The notes beneath the pieces are model-generated. The model saw nothing but the letters and a program-made list of their open reading frames with translations. It ran no database searches and was not told where the DNA came from. From NCBI RefSeq assembly GCF_041431415.1, contig NZ_CP107845.1:3782001-3846000 (forward strand): 64,000 nt of DNA. The letters are read 5' to 3'. The DNA is from Streptomyces sp. NBC_00513 (GTDB lineage: Bacteria > Actinomycetota > Actinomycetes > Streptomycetales > Streptomycetaceae). Position 1 is the first letter of the stretch. Each line of letters starts with the position of its first letter. Below are positions 1-13,626 of this stretch, in pieces. The position numbers were made by a program, and so were the translations under genes.

Positions 1-1
1 C

Positions 2-1312
2 CAGAAGGACGCTTTCGAGTACGGGGACCGCAGCTGGCTCGCCGCCGTGGAGTTGCTGCGAGGTGTGGCACCACTCCAGCCCAAGCGCGCTCCGGGCTAC
101 CTGGAGAACGACAGCCCGTTGGCCCTGCTGTTCAAGGGCTTCCGCCGCAACGACGCGGGCCTGCGCTGCCTCGTACCCGGCGACGGCAACAAGCCTGTCC
201 ACGCGGACACCCGAGACTGGGGCCGGAAGTTCCAAGCAGGCGTCTCCCAGTTCCAGACCGACGAACACTGGTGGCAGGCGGTCCTGCGGCACGAGGAGAT
301 CAAGAACCAGGGCAAGCAGGCGAAGACGGCGGCCAGCGTGCCGGCCCAGCCTGACGAGCAGGCCGTCCTGGGTGCCCTCGGCATGCCCGCCAACATCCCC
401 GCCTCCGGCGCGGCTCAGCCCGATACCGGGCCCAAGGTCGTCTCCGCCGCGCCCGCCCCGGCCGTGGCGATCGAGGAGAGGATGGAGACCCGTGGCGAGC
501 GCCTGGCCCGTTATGAGGACGCGGCGTTGCCGCACGCCTACCTGAGCCGATCGTTCGGGCACCCCGAGCTCGGCTACGTGAAGGTACGGACCCTGCTGCT
601 GAAGCCGGGCAAGCGGCTTCTCGACGACAACGGGCTGCATGTTCCGGTACTCCTCGATCAGCGGTCCGGCAATGAGCTCACCGCCCTCGCCGACCCTGAG
701 CACACCGCGTTCCGACGGTTCGGAGCGGACTACGCCGACCTACTACTGGTCGAACTGGCCGCCGTGCTGAAGGTACGGGCTCGCTCCGACTGGAGCCCGT
801 CCCAGCTCGTCGCCGCGATCCGCGCCGAGTCCCTGCAGGACAGCGCACTCGACGGCACCACCGTCGGCGCGGAGGCCCGCGACCTCCTCGCGGACATCCG
901 CGAGCGTGTGGCCGAGGCCCTCGATCAGAGCGGTGACTACACCACCGCCTACGGTCACCTCTCCAAGGGGGAGGAGACGGCGACCGAGGAGGCGATGATC
1001 GCCGCCGGCCGGGTTGGTCTCGTCGGCCGTGCAGGCCTGGACTCCGGGTTCATCCACCATGTTCCCGCACTGGCTCTGGTCCGGCTCGTCGAGGCGATGC
1101 CGGCTTCGTTCATGGACGGTGCTGTCTTCCGTGGCCCGTACGCCGGGGTGTCCTCGCTGTCCGGGAAGGCCCTGAGCCTGGCCCGGGTCACAGGCTGCCT
1201 CTCGGACGTCGCAACGCTCGGTACCTTCACAGGCGAGGCCACCGCACCACAGCTGCGGCGTGCCCGCCTGAGCATCGCCCTCCTGCGCGACGAACTTGCG
1301 GGGGAGGAATGA
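2..1312 (+). CDS. Unrecognised protein, 5' end outside window (partial)
   Basis: The frame is open from the first base, so the true start lies upstream; 436 residues are visible. I do not recognise the family. An aromatic, charged block near residues 60-100 (GRKFQAGVSQFQTDEHWW) is followed by an Ala/Pro-rich linker (about 115-160) and then a predicted helical C-terminal domain. There are no transmembrane segments and no obvious nucleotide-binding or nuclease motif in the visible part. Two consecutive CTA leucine codons (around 749-754) are unusual for this GC-rich background. The stop overlaps the start of the nuclease-helicase gene (ATGA), so the two are translationally coupled and probably act together. 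It could be the C-terminal part of a larger multidomain protein of a defence-type cassette; that is inference. Confidence 0.75.
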   Translation, partial: QKDAFEYGDRSWLAAVELLRGVAPLQPKRAPGYLENDSPLALLFKGFRRNDAGLRCLVPGDGNKPVHADTRDWGRKFQAGVSQFQTDEHWWQAVLRHEEIKNQGKQAKTAASVPAQPDEQAVLGALGMPANIPASGAAQPDTGPKVVSAAPAPAVAIEERMETRGERLARYEDAALPHAYLSRSFGHPELGYVKVRTLLLKPGKRLLDDNGLHVPVLLDQRSGNELTALADPEHTAFRRFGADYADLLLVELAAVLKVRARSDWSPSQLVAAIRAESLQDSALDGTTVGAEARDLLADIRERVAEALDQSGDYTTAYGHLSKGEETATEEAMIAAGRVGLVGRAGLDSGFIHHVPALALVRLVEAMPASFMDGAVFRGPYAGVSSLSGKALSLARVTGCLSDVATLGTFTGEATAPQLRRARLSIALLRDELAGEE

Positions 1313-2973
1313 GCGCCGCGTTCCTGACGGCTACCGAACTCCGCGAGGGCGGCCCGGAGGGACTGACCAAGGCGCTTGAACGGACCCTGTGGCACCTGGG
1401 ATTCCAGGATGTCCGTGTCATCGACGGAGCCCATGACCACGGCGCCGATCTGCTCGCGGTCCGCGACCGCGAGCAGTGGGTGTTCCAGAGCAAGTGGAAG
1501 GCGCACGGCACAGCCGACCATGCGGGCGTCGACGACCTTGAGCGCGCCCGCACCCACTACCGCGCCGACAAAGCCGTCCTGGTGACCAATACGAACATCG
1601 CTGCGTCGGCCGAGGCGAGGCGTCAGGCGCTGGCGGGGATTGGCGTCGACATCACCCTTTGGCACGGGGCCACTCTGGACGCCATCGGCCAGAGGATGCC
1701 CGACCGCGTGCCAGCCCCCTATGCCCTGCGGCCCTACCAGGAGCAGGCCGTGGCCGCGATCGAACGGGACCTCGACGCCGAAGGGACGGCGCTGTTGGTC
1801 CTGGCGACAGGGCTGGGTAAGACGGTCGTAGGTGGCGAGGTCATCGGCAACCTCCTCGCCTCGCGTCCAGACGCGCGTGTCCTGGTCGTCGCGCACATGC
1901 GCGACCTGGTCGGTCAGCTAGAAAAGGCGCTTTGGCGGCACATCCCGAAGAGCGTGCCCACCCGCCTCCTCACCGGCGAGAACAAGCCCCGGGCCCTCGA
2001 CGGCGTCGTCGTCGCCACTGTCGAGTCGGCGCTGTCCGCCGTACGTACGGGCTACGAGCCCGACCTCATCATGATCGACGAGACCCACCACGTGGCCGAG
2101 ACCGGCAGGTTTGCGGAACTCCTCGATCTGTGTGGGACTACGGGGCAATTCGGGGTCACCGCCACGCCCTGGCGCGGCGACAAGTTCGATATCACCGCCC
2201 GCTTCGGTCAGCCGAGCTTCAAGATGGGTATCGCCGAGGGCATGGCGGCGGGCTACCTGTCGGCTGTCGACTACAAGTTGTACGCGGACGGCGTCGACTG
2301 GGATGCCGTGCAGGACATCAGCCGACACGGTTACTCCATCAAGGACCTCAATCGGCGCCTGTTCCTTCCCCAGCGGGACGAGGAGATCGTCGAGCACCTG
2401 CGGGCGGCCTGGCGCGAGACGGCCGAGCCCCGCGCCATCGTGTTCTGCCAGACAATCGAGCACGCCGAGCACATGGCAGGAGTCCTTGCTGTCTCGGACC
2501 CGGCGTGGGTTAGGGCCTCCCACCTGCATAGCGGCCTGCCGAAGCGTCACCGCGACGTCTTGCTAAACGAGTTCCGCCTCGGCCGTGTCCCAGTGATCAC
2601 CTGCGTTGACGTGTTCAACGAGGGCGTAGACGTTCCGGACGTGAACCTGATCGCCTTCCTGCGCGTCACCCACAGCCGCAGGATCTTTGTGCAGCAGCTC
2701 GGCCGCGGCCTACGGCTGAGCCCCGGCAAAAGGGCCCTGAAGGTCCTCGACTTCGTGACCGACATCCGCCGCGCCGCAGCGGTGCTGAACCTGCGGCGGA
2801 CGCTGGAGGCCGAGGAGTCCGAGCACCTGGAATTGCCCCACGTCTCTCGGATCGAATTCCAGGACGAGACGGTCGGCTCCCTGATGGACATGTGGATCCA
2901 GGACGCCGCAGACCTTGAGACCGCGGCGGACGAGGTCCGCCTCCAATTCCCCCTACCGAAAGGAATCCTGTGA
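1309..2973 (+). CDS. Mrr-type endonuclease fused to SF2 (ResIII/DEAD-like) helicase
   Basis: This 554-aa protein joins a restriction-endonuclease-like domain to a superfamily 2 helicase. Residues about 15-125 carry the Mrr-type active-site pattern: Asp47 in HDHGADLLA followed by Gln60-Ser-Lys62. The helicase follows: Q-like motif RPYQEQA (141-147), Walker A ATGLGKT (166-172), Walker B DETH (257-260), motif III TATPWR (284-289), and motif VI QQLGRGLR near residue 465. Such fusions are known as stand-alone or operon-borne DNA-targeting proteins of restriction and anti-phage systems. The start overlaps the previous stop and the stop overlaps the next start, so it is the middle of an operon. It contains rare CTA codons. 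The motifs are clear; the biological target is unknown. Confidence 0.88.
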   Translation: MSAAFLTATELREGGPEGLTKALERTLWHLGFQDVRVIDGAHDHGADLLAVRDREQWVFQSKWKAHGTADHAGVDDLERARTHYRADKAVLVTNTNIAASAEARRQALAGIGVDITLWHGATLDAIGQRMPDRVPAPYALRPYQEQAVAAIERDLDAEGTALLVLATGLGKTVVGGEVIGNLLASRPDARVLVVAHMRDLVGQLEKALWRHIPKSVPTRLLTGENKPRALDGVVVATVESALSAVRTGYEPDLIMIDETHHVAETGRFAELLDLCGTTGQFGVTATPWRGDKFDITARFGQPSFKMGIAEGMAAGYLSAVDYKLYADGVDWDAVQDISRHGYSIKDLNRRLFLPQRDEEIVEHLRAAWRETAEPRAIVFCQTIEHAEHMAGVLAVSDPAWVRASHLHSGLPKRHRDVLLNEFRLGRVPVITCVDVFNEGVDVPDVNLIAFLRVTHSRRIFVQQLGRGLRLSPGKRALKVLDFVTDIRRAAAVLNLRRTLEAEESEHLELPHVSRIEFQDETVGSLMDMWIQDAADLETAADEVRLQFPLPKGIL

Positions 2974-3569
2974 CCGACTATAAGATCCCGGCTGCCGTCG
3001 AGAGGGCCGTGTGCACTCGGATCTACTCCCAGGCCGACGAAGCCCATTGGCCGCACCTCCAGGACGCGGACCGCACCCGCTTGTACCGCGAGTGGACGGA
3101 GGACCCGGAGATCGGCGGCCGCCTTCTTGACTTCGTGGGGCAGCGGGCCAACATCCGGCCGTGGCTGAAGGACTGCCCCATGAAGGAGTACGAGCGGGCG
3201 CGGCGCGGAGAAGGAAAGTACGCCAAGTACGTGACGCGGCCGGCCGCGACGCTCGAACAGATGGTAGCGGCGACGTTCGGCCCCGACTGGGAGGTCATTC
3301 CGGAGACCACTCAGCAGAAGCCGATGCGCGTGAGGATCCGTGAGATCGGTACCGAGGACGAGGAGCAGCACTTCGTGGCCGGCACGGAGGCGAACCTCAA
3401 GCACCTCGTGTGGCCCGCCATCCTCGACCGGTCCACTGGTGGGGCCTGGCCGTGGACGGTCTGCATCGTCGACCCGTTCCGGGCTCCGGTATCGCCCGAG
3501 AAGAAGGAGGGGCATCAGCGCATGGCGGAGTTCCTCGGGGTGCGGTTCGTCTATTTCAACGAGATGTAG
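2970..3569 (+). CDS. Unknown 199-aa protein of the nuclease-helicase cassette
   Basis: The GTG start overlaps the TGA of the nuclease-helicase gene, giving a 4-base coupling. I do not recognise the family. The N-terminal third is rich in Trp, Arg and Asp (HWPHLQDADRTRLYREW); the C-terminal third has LVWPAILDRSTGG and a hydrophobic strand WTVCIVDP. There is no signal peptide or membrane segment, so it is probably cytoplasmic. Position and coupling suggest a small subunit or regulator acting with the nuclease-helicase; nothing in the sequence proves that. Confidence 0.72.
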   Translation: MTDYKIPAAVERAVCTRIYSQADEAHWPHLQDADRTRLYREWTEDPEIGGRLLDFVGQRANIRPWLKDCPMKEYERARRGEGKYAKYVTRPAATLEQMVAATFGPDWEVIPETTQQKPMRVRIREIGTEDEEQHFVAGTEANLKHLVWPAILDRSTGGAWPWTVCIVDPFRAPVSPEKKEGHQRMAEFLGVRFVYFNEM

Positions 3570-3578
3570 GGGGAGCCG

Positions 3579-4919
3579 ATGGGGGACGAGTGGTCCATGG
3601 CCAGGCATCTGCGCAGGGTGTGGGAGGAGGTTTTCGACGAGCGGGAGAGGGTCGTCGTCGCGGGTCGGTCTGAGGGGCGGACTCTGGACGAGGTTGGAGC
3701 GGCGCTCGGGCTGAGCCGCGAACGCGCGCGCCAGATCCAGAATGGGGCGCGGAGGCGGATCGCGGAGGTGCCAGACTTCTTCCAGGACGGTTGGCGGGAT
3801 GTGGCTCGGGCTACGGGCGCAGGCCCGGCCACCCCGCGAGGGGCCTTCGCCGCCGCGCTTGAGCTCGTCGACCACGTGTTGCTGGACGAGCTGCTGACAG
3901 CAGCTGGGCTGGACGTGCCGAGGACGTGGGCAGGGCCCCTGCGTGGCTGGTGGACCACGGATCCCGGCGCCTTGAGGGTCGCCCTACGCCGCCTTGTCGA
4001 AGCCGCGCCCTTCCGCGGCGACGACGTCGCCCTGGAGGCCTTCGCCGCAGGACTACCAGCAGGCCTCCCTCTGGCGCGACTCCTGAGCCACTCCGAGTCC
4101 CGGCTCGTCTTGAGTCCCGACGGGCACTGGGTTCGCCGTAAGGCGCGGGGGCGAGACGCGGCGTACCTGTCGTTGCTGGAGAACGGGCGTCCGTGCCGGG
4201 CCGACGACCTGCTCGCCCCGATGGCCGCGACGACCGTCGCGGCCGTGCGGGAGGCGCTGCGTCGTGACGACCGGTTCCGGCAGATCCGGCCCGAAGGCAC
4301 CTGGGCCCTGACTGAGTGGACGCACCTGCGCGCCTCTACGTACTCCACCGCTGTGGAGGCGATGGTCGCGGTGGTAACCGAGTCGGGCCCCCTATCCGTG
4401 ACACGGCTCTTCGCCACGGTCGCGGAGCTGTACCCCGTCACGCAGTGGCGCCTGAAGCAGTGCTTGCTGAGTGACCAGCTTGGTGAGACCCCTGACGGCC
4501 TCGTCGACCTAGTCTCCCGTGGTGCCCGCCCCTTTGAGGAGGAGGAACCGGCCCGACCAGAGACGATGGCCATCGAAGGAGAGGTCCTCGGCGTACGGAT
4601 CCTCGTGAACCGGGACATCCTGCGCGGAAGTGGTGTCAATGTGCACACCTGGCTGACCTGGCGGCTCGGGCTGCGCCGGGCACCGATGAGCCGCACGTTC
4701 ACGATGCCCGGGAACCACTCACCTCTCGTCGTTCGCCGCGGCACCAGTGGCGCCCAACTCTCCAGCCTGCGGCGCCACGCGCTCGAACTCGGGGTCGCCG
4801 ATGGTTGCGTGCTCGCGGTCCTCCTACGCCTCGACGGCGGCACCGCGCGCGTCGGCCACGGCTGCGCACCGGAAACCTGTCCGGCGCGGGCCGCCACGCC
4901 GCATGCGGTGAACCTCTGA
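3579..4919 (+). CDS. Sigma-region-4-like HTH protein with probable winged-helix segments
   Basis: A 446-aa protein starting 9 bases after the previous stop, with a purine-rich GGGGGA ribosome site. Residues about 18-62 look like sigma-70 region 4: a helix with DERERVVVAGRSEGRT, then DEVGAALGLSRERARQIQ, the pattern that contacts the -35 element in sigma factors. There is no region 2, so it is not a full sigma factor. Two later blocks (about 190-240 and 244-315) read like winged helices; the first ends with the strand EGTWALTEW, reminiscent of HARE-HTH domains found with restriction systems. The C-terminal 110 residues are unrecognised. It is the last gene of the cassette and could be a DNA sensor or its transcription regulator. 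Confidence 0.8.
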   Translation: MGDEWSMARHLRRVWEEVFDERERVVVAGRSEGRTLDEVGAALGLSRERARQIQNGARRRIAEVPDFFQDGWRDVARATGAGPATPRGAFAAALELVDHVLLDELLTAAGLDVPRTWAGPLRGWWTTDPGALRVALRRLVEAAPFRGDDVALEAFAAGLPAGLPLARLLSHSESRLVLSPDGHWVRRKARGRDAAYLSLLENGRPCRADDLLAPMAATTVAAVREALRRDDRFRQIRPEGTWALTEWTHLRASTYSTAVEAMVAVVTESGPLSVTRLFATVAELYPVTQWRLKQCLLSDQLGETPDGLVDLVSRGARPFEEEEPARPETMAIEGEVLGVRILVNRDILRGSGVNVHTWLTWRLGLRRAPMSRTFTMPGNHSPLVVRRGTSGAQLSSLRRHALELGVADGCVLAVLLRLDGGTARVGHGCAPETCPARAATPHAVNL

Positions 4920-5128: not shown

Positions 5129-5174
5129 CCTCGTTCGGGACGAAGAGGTCGTGGGTTCAAATCCCGCCACCCCA
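5129..5174 (+). other. 3' half of a tRNA-Pro(CGG) gene: probable attachment-site remnant
   Basis: The sequence from the anticodon loop (TTCGGGA, anticodon CGG) through the variable region, a paired T arm (GTGGG/CCCGC around TTCAAAT) and the 3' acceptor strand CACCCC matches the 3' half of tRNA-Pro. The D arm and 5' acceptor strand are absent, and the 5' side of the anticodon stem carries a mismatch. A 3'-half tRNA next to a foreign-looking operon is what site-specific integration into a tRNA gene leaves at one end. The intact tRNA would then lie at the other end of the element, left of this window. Confidence 0.72.
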
Positions 5175-12557: not shown

Positions 12558-13626
12558 CGCCCGTCCGGTAGACCGTCCCGCCGCAGGCGTCGGGGATCGT
12601 CGTCTGCGTGGTCGGAGCCCCCGCCTCGGGGGTGTGGGACACGGCCACGCCCGCCGGGTCCGCGCCGGCGCCGCCGTTCACCGGGTCCGAGGCCGCCGCC
12701 CCGTCGGCGCCGGCGCCCTGGGTGCCGGCCGGCGGCTCGCCCGTACCGCCCGCCGGGGGCCTGCCCGTGGGTCCGGCGGATGCCGCCGGACAGGACTGGG
12801 CCGAGGGCACCCAGGCGAACCGCACCTCGTACGCGGCGTTCGGTTCGAGGACCACCGAGGCGGACTCGACGGCCGGATCGGGCAGCAGTTCGCTCGCCGG
12901 GTCCCCGGCGGTGTGGCTGAGCACGGTGACCCCGGAGCCCTGCGCGGGCGGGGCCGACCTCGCCACGGAGGCGGCGGTGACGGTGTCCGGGCCGGTGACC
13001 GTGCAGTCCCGGCCGGAGACGTTGGTGACCTTGAAACTGCCGTACACCTTGCCGTCGGCCCGGGGGGCGCGGGCGCTGCCCAGCACCCCCAGCTGGTCGG
13101 CGGAGCAGCCGGGCACCGCGCCGGCCGCGCCCACCGGGGGCCGCGGGGTGATGTCCGAACCGCTCGCGGCGCCGGCGGAGGCCGTGCCGGACGGGCCTGC
13201 CACGACGCTGTCCGAGGGGGAGCCGCTCGGCCTCGGGGACGGTGTGCCGCCGGCGGTCTGGCCGGCCCCCGGATGGAAGGTGGGCTGGGCGGCGGACTTG
13301 CCCGAGCCGTTCTGGTGCGGGTCGGAGGTGCCCCCGTTGGCGCCGTCCTGCTGTTGCCCGTGTCCGGCCATGGTGGAGTGGTCCGTGGCGGAGCCCTGGG
13401 CTCCGGTCAGGTGCAGGGCGGTCGGGACGGCCGCCCCGGCGAGTACGGCCGCGGCGGCGGCGCAGACGAGGACCTGCCGTTTGCGGGCCCGGCGCGCGGG
13501 GACGGCGTACCGCAGTCGCTCCAGCGCTCCCTCGGACGGCTCCAGGCTTTGGACGGCTCCGCTCAGCAGGCTTCGCAGCGCCTGTTCGTCGGCGCCTTCG
13601 GCGTCGTTCTTCCGGTCGTCCATCAT
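12529..13626 (-). CDS. Membrane-anchored partner (probable anti-sigma) of the ECF sigma factor
   Basis: 365 aa. A cytoplasmic N-terminus of about 48 residues (LRSLLSGAVQSLEPSEGALERLRYAVPARR) precedes one membrane helix (about 50-70). Then comes a long Gly/Ser/Pro-rich extracellular linker and a domain resembling DUF4232 (CSADQLGVLGSARA, then FKVTNVSGRDCTVTGPD, about 193-245). It lacks an obvious zinc-type HxxxCxxC anti-sigma motif. The start overlaps the sigma stop (TCATGATG), so the two are coupled, as is usual for sigma/anti-sigma pairs. The external domain might sense a cell-wall or secreted signal; that is inference. Confidence 0.72.
   Translation of the reverse strand: MMDDRKNDAEGADEQALRSLLSGAVQSLEPSEGALERLRYAVPARRARKRQVLVCAAAAAVLAGAAVPTALHLTGAQGSATDHSTMAGHGQQQDGANGGTSDPHQNGSGKSAAQPTFHPGAGQTAGGTPSPRPSGSPSDSVVAGPSGTASAGAASGSDITPRPPVGAAGAVPGCSADQLGVLGSARAPRADGKVYGSFKVTNVSGRDCTVTGPDTVTAASVARSAPPAQGSGVTVLSHTAGDPASELLPDPAVESASVVLEPNAAYEVRFAWVPSAQSCPAASAGPTGRPPAGGTGEPPAGTQGAGADGAAASDPVNGGAGADPAGVAVSHTPEAGAPTTQTTIPDACGGTVYRTGAIALGASTR

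What the first reader, a model, noticed from the sequence alone, without database searches (positions are those of the whole stretch)
2..4919. Unnamed four-gene nuclease-helicase cassette at an island edge
Mrr-nuclease-helicase fusion, a 199-aa unknown, an unrecognised large protein and a sigma-r4/winged-helix protein are coupled by 4-base overlaps or a 9-base gap. The combination does not match any defence system I can name. A coupled operon with a DNA-targeting enzyme beside an attachment-site remnant is the profile of an anti-phage system.
Basis: partly seen in the sequence, partly recalled or inferred. Interest (0 to 1): 0.78.

Follow-up and report, generated by a model that had tools for sequence, protein, structure and literature searches.

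The report
MORC-type restriction operon in Streptomyces island
The four genes look like the DNA-attacking half of a DNA-marking-and-cutting defence system built around a bacterial relative of the MORC proteins of animals and plants, with two parts that had no known family, so it could show what bacterial MORC proteins do.

Summary
In detail: genes A (partial), B (Mrr nuclease + SF2 helicase), C (199 aa) and D (sigma-70 region 4) overlap by 4 bases or lie 9 bases apart. The genome completes A: 781 aa, a GHKL ATPase whose only PDB matches at E<=0.01 are MORC3 and MORC4. Upstream in the same 12.96-kb tRNA-Pro island lie an Eco29kI-like REase, a cytosine methyltransferase (Dcm) and Vsr. In loci fetched through A, B is present in 45 of 45, Dcm in 44 of 44, Vsr in 38 of 44, C in 38 of 45, D in 33 of 45. 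So this is most likely the restriction arm of a MORC-type restriction-modification system, a class predicted in 2008 (PMC2292703), not an unrelated four-gene system. New here: C, with a degenerate nuclease-like fold (moderate evidence), and D, sigma region 4 + winged helices + B3-like barrel, perhaps the target-recognition subunit. In two distant loci a MzaA-like sigma factor follows B. PADLOC and NCBIfam have no fitting model. The paper searches found no experiment on a bacterial MORC. Function is inferred, not tested.

The parts
1..1312 (+). Gene A, C-terminal 436 aa of a 781-aa MORC-like GHKL ATPase with zinc ribbon; starts at C1:3780967, 1,034 bases left of the window
   Evidence: HATPase_c_3 E 1.9e-7; GHKL motifs and two CxxC pairs invariant in 19 sequences; only MORC3/MORC4 in PDB at E<=0.01
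1309..2973 (+). Gene B, 554 aa, N-terminal Mrr nuclease fused to SF2 (ResIII/RadD-like) helicase; nuclease and helicase motifs intact
   Evidence: (D43, G45, D47, Q60, K62, GLGKT, DE.HH, TATP, QQ.GRGLR at >=97% in 47 full-length B)
2970..3569 (+). Gene C, 199 aa: helical N-terminal domain with R-x-W-x-K-D motif, C-terminal restriction-endonuclease-like fold (moderate evidence) without conserved catalytic residues
   Evidence: (pLDDT 92.2)
3579..4919 (+). Gene D, 446 aa: sigma-70 region 4 (7-68), winged helices, B3-like DNA-binding barrel (333-432)
   Evidence: (pLDDT 92.7)
5131..5173 (+). attachment-site copy: exact 43-base repeat of tRNA-Pro(CGG) 3' end; imperfect repeat continues to 5232

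Best explanation
A-B-C-D is the restriction arm of an ATP-dependent, MORC-type restriction-modification system carried on a tRNA-Pro island. Shown by sequence: a Dcm-family cytosine methyltransferase and a Vsr mismatch endonuclease lie upstream, and A, B, C, D form one tight operon. Predicted from relatives: Dcm marks CCGCGG (its target domain resembles M.Eco29kI) and Vsr repairs the T:G mismatches that 5-methylcytosine produces. Inferred: D, through its B3-like barrel and HTH domains, binds the unmethylated target; C, a pseudo-nuclease, bridges D or DNA to the motor; the MORC ATPase A closes as a dimeric clamp on the DNA and holds or loops it; B translocates and cuts with its Mrr domain. Host DNA is spared because Dcm has methylated its sites. 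In this island an Eco29kI-like REase probably gives a second, ATP-independent cut at the same site.
Confidence: 0.65

Rival explanations
1. D is a transcriptional regulator of the operon (a controller protein made of sigma region 4, winged helices and a B3-like barrel); target recognition lies in C, A or B.
For: D is the least constant of the four (33 of 45), has a sigma region 4, which binds -35 elements in sigma factors (function from general knowledge), and sits last in the operon; controller proteins are usual in restriction systems (general knowledge).
Against: D stays next to C (C-D distance at most 60 bases in 33 of 33); the B3 domain of the CglI/NgoAVII R-proteins belongs to the subunit that binds the recognition site (PMC4267653 passages).
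Confidence: 0.3
2. The set is a DNA-repair system for 5-methylcytosine deamination: a MutL-like ATPase, helicase and nuclease working with Vsr or a HhH-GPD glycosylase.
For: A is a GHKL ATPase of the MutL superfamily; Vsr is present in 38 of 44 loci and HhH-GPD proteins occur in two of the six loci without a Vsr match, L045 and L048.
Against: Patchy (A in 20 of 392 genomes), island-borne, with an Mrr nuclease and sometimes an extra REase; Vsr alone would explain the repair need of any Dcm.
Confidence: 0.1
3. A-B-C-D is a modification-dependent (Type IV) restriction system that attacks DNA carrying foreign modifications and only travels with Dcm.
For: Mrr is a Type IV nuclease domain (general knowledge); PADLOC's best hit for B is a Type IV REase model, E 9.4e-35, through the helicase part.
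Against: Dcm is present in 44 of 44 loci; a 5mC-directed nuclease beside a resident 5mC methyltransferase would attack the host.
Confidence: 0.12
4. Unrelated genes gathered in an island.
For: The island also holds a broken PDC-S11-like gene and an unknown 556-aa gene.
Against: Conserved order and spacing across genera and, for Dcm-A-B, phyla.
Confidence: 0.02

Closest known systems
MORC/paraMORC restriction-modification operons predicted by Iyer, Abhiman and Aravind 2008 (PMC2292703)
   Same: MORC-like GHKL ATPase, SFII helicase fused to a restriction-endonuclease fold, Dcm and Vsr neighbours; Streptomyces avermitilis is in their figure 1 legend
   Different: The text has 0 occurrences of sigma and of Mrr, and the three parts of four that I read name no C-like protein; figures are not held. 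The B3 (VP1/RAV) domain there goes with the SWI2/SNF2 type, here with a ResIII-type helicase.
MZA anti-phage system (mzaABCDE)
   Same: GHKL ATPase (MzaB) and sigma-70-family protein (MzaA); the sigma proteins after B in L045 and L046 match MzaA better than any other NCBIfam model, E 3.5e-67 and 1.7e-59
CglI / NgoAVII ATP-dependent restriction systems
   Same: 5mC methyltransferase, SF2 ATPase, nuclease and B3-like recognition domain acting together (PMC4267653 passages, PMC5737866 abstract)
Eco29kI GIY-YIG restriction system (pECO29)
   Same: REase and Dcm of the same families upstream in this island; six active-site residues kept
   Different: The pECO29 record lists only these two genes
VcSduA, a GHKL-ATPase Shedu defence protein (PMC12137116)
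   Same: a GHKL ATPase in an experimentally tested phage-defence protein (passages)
   Different: GHKL fused to a DUF4263 nuclease in one protein; no helicase, Dcm, C or D named in the passages seen

Membership tests
MORC ATPase family | four GHKL nucleotide-binding motifs | tested here: met
   E26..D29 N30, D67.G69.G71, G95..G98.G100 and G154-T155 invariant in 19 sequences
MORC ATPase family | closer to MORC than to other GHKL families | tested here: met
   profile of A finds only MORC3 (two sequences) and MORC4 among 177,635 PDB sequences at E<=0.01; other GHKL families were not compared by tree
MORC ATPase family | S5 motif GhXhhpXXRhl | tested here: inconclusive
   G286-I-D-F-L-R-N-G-R-K-I296 fits 10 of 11 positions; K295 is not hydrophobic (motif from PMC2292703, residues)
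MORC-type restriction-modification operon | SFII helicase fused to restriction-endonuclease fold next to the ATPase | tested here: met
   Mrr_cat + ResIII + Helicase_C in B, adjacent in 45 of 45 loci
MORC-type restriction-modification operon | DNA methyltransferase and Vsr in the neighbourhood | tested here: met
   Dcm E 1.1e-46, Vsr E 4.6e-17 in the island; 44 of 44 and 38 of 44 loci
MORC-type restriction-modification operon | restriction of unmethylated DNA | not testable with these tools
   needs an experiment
MZA | MzaA and MzaB models at curated cut-off | tested here: not met
   12.6 of 800 bits (D) and 16.3 of 850 bits (A)
CglI/NgoAVII | B3-like recognition domain | tested here: inconclusive
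Eco29kI-type REase (neighbour gene) | Pfam RE_Eco29kI and active-site residues Y49, Y76, R104, H108, E142, N154 | tested here: met
   150.7 bits against cut-off 30.8; all six aligned
Sigma factor | regions 2 and 4 | tested here: not met
   D has region 4 only; the L045 and L046 proteins have regions 2 and 4 above cut-off, region 3 below

The most novel reading that the evidence does not exclude
A restriction machine steered by a sigma factor: D descends from, or replaces, a MzaA-like sigma factor and recognises promoter-type elements or RNA polymerase on incoming DNA, so that the MORC clamp and Mrr-helicase are loaded where transcription starts on unmethylated foreign DNA. The same sigma + GHKL + helicase + nuclease + 5mC plan would underlie both this system and MZA.
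Probability: 0.15. Interest if true: 0.85.

Novelty: new variant of a known kind. Interest (0 to 1): 0.6.

Why it matters
Eukaryotic MORC proteins were proposed in 2008 to come from bacterial restriction systems (PMC2292703), but the text searches made here found no experiment on a bacterial MORC. This is a compact operon with intact reading frames and its own methyltransferase and repair enzyme, in a culturable genus, so the question can be tested. It also brings two families without Pfam, NCBIfam or PADLOC description as wholes (C and D), links MZA to MORC restriction systems through a shared sigma-like subunit, and predicts a target site.

Tried and rejected
Unnamed four-gene defence system: rejected once the genome showed Dcm, Vsr and an REase upstream and once Dcm was present in 44 of 44 loci. 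Membership of MZA and of CglI/NgoAVII: rejected at model cut-offs or by missing domains. C as an active nuclease: the fold core is there but no acidic/lysine triad is conserved (invariant R63, K67; nearly invariant W65, D68, K72, K117, P118). C by Pfam: only weak scattered hits among 48 members; by sequence in PDB: nothing better than E 0.69. D-Dcm co-evolution as proof that D reads the Dcm site: D's B3 part and the Dcm target domain correlate at 0.54, against 0.38 and 0.60 for the other two D parts and 0.51 for A, so it says nothing. The five weaker class-scan matches to D (G055, G151, G307 and two in G078) had no A, B or C in their short loci; ORFs of four of these loci were listed and not followed further. 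Empty-site proof: one relative (G405) has tRNA-Pro, but the window's right flank matches there over only 56 bases, so no clean empty site was shown. No integrase was found among the ten island ORFs scanned. Rows dropped: L054 and L055 (A matches of 60 and 39 residues) before all counts; five further loci with under 4.2 kb right of A for the B, C, D counts, and one more under 14 kb for Dcm, Vsr, Eco29kI. Loci were fetched through A, so A is present by construction; many are close relatives, so counts are not independent. The genus scans used different cut-offs (A 1e-40, D 1e-10, C 1e-5).

Papers: PMC2292703 read as parts 1-3 of 4 plus a term search of the whole; PMC8011034, PMC9523054, PMC12137116, PMC4267653, PMC1952068 and PMC10924106 passages only; PMC5737866 abstract and outline; other papers only as search listings. 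The Gao 2020 MZA paper was not held; the make-up of MZA beyond the NCBIfam names and the passage in PMC9523054 is recalled, as are the B3 class of ARF1, VRN1 and LlaJI.R1 and the fold of XisH.

Full report
The four genes are present as described. One search lists ORFs 2-1312 (open at the left end), 1309-2973, 2970-3569 and 3579-4919 on the + strand, with 4-base overlaps and a 9-base gap. One search gives Mrr_cat, ResIII and Helicase_C in B and Sigma70_r4 in D, and nothing in C or in the partial A.

The window lies at C1:3782001-3846000 of an 8.62-Mb genome. The genus is Streptomyces by inference: contigs of its genus-mates G595 and G571 have the same lengths as named Streptomyces contigs. DNA to the left completes A: 781 aa from C1:3780967. 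A tRNA-Pro(CGG) gene at C1:3774147-3774221 and an exact 43-base copy of its 3' end at window 5131-5173, the copies 12,955 bases apart, mark the two ends of an island; the repeat continues to window 5232 with 97 of 102 positions equal. Inside, from left to right, lie a 556-aa unknown, a broken PDC-S11-like gene, an Eco29kI-like GIY-YIG REase on the minus strand (E 4.3e-44), Dcm (E 1.1e-46), Vsr (E 4.6e-17, with a start codon that overlaps the end of Dcm by 4 bases), a 606-base gap, then A-B-C-D. No integrase was seen among the ten ORFs scanned. Elsewhere, 12 of 47 named loci hold a tRNA gene, two of them (L021, L031) tRNA-Pro(CGG).

A is a MORC-like GHKL ATPase. Pfam HATPase_c_3 scores E 1.9e-7. 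In 19 sequences (the other 18 are 54-90% identical to the window's) the four nucleotide motifs and two CxxC pairs are invariant. A profile of these against all PDB sequences finds three at E<=0.01: MORC3, MORC3 and MORC4. The motif that defines MORC in PMC2292703, GhXhhpXXRhl, is met at 10 of 11 positions. The match to NCBIfam MzaB is weak, 16.3 bits against a cut-off of 850.

B is an intact nuclease-helicase. In 47 full-length sequences the Mrr residues D43, G45, D47, Q60, K62 and the Walker A, DExH, TATP and QxxGRGLR motifs are conserved at 97% or more; the Acidobacteriota copy L049 has lost the Mrr motif.

Co-occurrence. A scan of 84,980 species genomes with A returned 52 loci; two with tiny matches were dropped. 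Of 45 loci with at least 4.2 kb to the right of A, B is in 45, C in 38, D in 33; of 44 loci of at least 14 kb, Dcm is in 44, Vsr in 38, the Eco29kI-like REase in 13. Dcm and Vsr lie left or right and on either strand. One locus (L037) has D without a C match; six (L010, L028, L036, L038, L040, L041) have C without a D match. Spacings are tight: A-B within 5 bases in 46 of 46, B-C within 68 in 38 of 38, C-D within 60 in 33 of 33. In 392 genomes of the genus, A occurs in 20, C in 17, D in 7; all 7 D genomes hold A and C at the same place, and 16 of 17 C genomes hold A, the exception being G594. As a rough guide, chance overlap would have probabilities of 2.9e-10 and 7.5e-24, ignoring kinship. 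Of the 21 A loci of that scan, B is beside A in 17; four distant paralogues (in G450, G590, G606 and G759) show none. In a class-wide draw of 394 genomes D matched in 8; the four strong ones have B and C beside D, the other four genomes only weak matches without A, B or C nearby. The A-B-C unit also occurs in the genus without a D match (L108-L114), in all seven with Dcm and Vsr, in several orders.

Beyond Actinobacteria the core is Dcm-A-B. Two Clostridia loci read Dcm-A-B-(C)-Vsr with a 191- or 204-aa gene in C's place that keeps the C motif at 12-14% identity. In a Caldilineaceae and a gammaproteobacterial MAG locus B is followed after 27 and 2 bases by a protein with sigma-70 regions 2 and 4 above Pfam cut-off and region 3 below it, whose best NCBIfam model is MzaA (E 3.5e-67 and 1.7e-59, below its cut-off). 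Their A proteins are 55% and their sigma proteins 31% identical. In a third locus (Chloroflexi MAG, L048) a divergently placed 530-aa protein aligns with D over 364 columns (hhalign E 1.3e-4, probability 53%). Of the six loci without a Vsr match, L045 and L048 hold a HhH-GPD glycosylase. A sigma-like protein is thus a recurring but not constant partner, and a likely T:G repair enzyme usually accompanies the methyltransferase.

Target. The Dcm target domain shares the stretch around GHT, P.KT.KAG.HGVPGGE with M.Eco29kI of pECO29 (34% over the domain) and with a Paraburkholderia Vsr-Dcm-Eco29kI cluster (42%). R.Eco29kI binds CCGCGG and its active site comprises Y49, Y76, R104, H108, E142 and N154 (PMC1952068 passages); all six align in the island's REase. 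CCGCGG is therefore the predicted site here, and possibly in other actinobacterial loci, whose target domains are at least 48% alike in the pairs listed; L045 and L050 differ.

Reading. The parts say: Dcm marks, Vsr mends deamination, A-B-C(-D) attacks what is unmarked. In 31 of 44 loci no Eco29kI-like REase was found, so there A-B-C(-D) is the obvious restriction arm, although other REase families were not scanned for throughout and L041 also holds a GmrSD-type protein. CglI shows that a 5mC methyltransferase, an SF2 ATPase and a B3-bearing subunit can work as an ATP-dependent restriction enzyme (PMC4267653 passages). I infer that D reads the site, that A acts as an ATP-gated DNA clamp or looping engine as proposed for MORC restriction systems in PMC2292703, and that B moves and cuts. 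The weak points are D's absence from 12 of 45 loci, the modest fold evidence for C, the loose coupling of Dcm to A-B-C-D sequence, and the lack of any functional data.

Known or new. The operon class was predicted in 2008 (PMC2292703); its text has no sigma and no Mrr, and its figures were not held. Searches of the paper library for MORC with restriction, anti-phage or bacterial terms, for MzaA/MzaB (33), for Streptomyces antiphage and GHKL terms (37, 38), for language-model surveys (39) and for the gene set (98) found no description of this set and no experiment on a bacterial MORC; subscription journals and preprints are mostly not held. The nearest tested relative in those results is VcSduA, a GHKL-Shedu defence protein (PMC12137116 passages). 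I therefore rate it a new variant of a known kind.

Noticed in passing
L002:12035-12613 and 12613-13167 (C1:3776035-3777167): A PDC-S11-like candidate defence gene (PADLOC E 1.6e-31 and 4.8e-12 for its two parts) is split between two frames; in L009 the two matched parts lie in one frame (positions 1-300 and 310-852).
   Followed up: partly
L002:10380-12050; L008:15961-16170; L040:17132-18559; L052:18678-19109; L109:3554-4906; L103:478-1416: An unknown 556-aa family without a convincing Pfam, NCBIfam or PADLOC match recurs beside related systems, also next to the orphan C gene of G594.
   Followed up: no
L002:14301-16360 against L004-L006, L008, L009, L030: Dcm and Vsr seem to have been exchanged apart from A-B-C-D: A is 85-88% but Dcm about 60% identical to L004-L006, L008 and L009, while L030 has the closest Dcm and Vsr (71% and 77%) with A at 56%.
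   Followed up: partly
L045:9265-9990; L048:14953-15615: HhH-GPD glycosylases lie in MORC loci that lack a Vsr match, a likely substitute for repair of deaminated 5-methylcytosine.
   Followed up: partly
L045:14009-15544; L046:13992-15479: MzaA-like sigma-70 proteins with an N-terminal part of about 260 aa that contains several cysteines (L045) follow B directly.
   Followed up: partly
L116-L118: Distant A paralogues in ORFs of 646-779 aa stand without a B, C or Dcm match nearby.
   Followed up: no
L041:8205-9944: A GmrSD N-terminal-domain protein lies between Dcm and Vsr in the Pseudarthrobacter locus that lacks a D match.
   Followed up: no
L103 / L115 (G594:C162): A C homologue without A or B nearby.
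   Followed up: no
L002:16361-16966: 606-base gap between Vsr and A without a convincing gene (ORFs of 62-217 aa overlap it); the A-B-C-D promoter may lie here.
   Followed up: no
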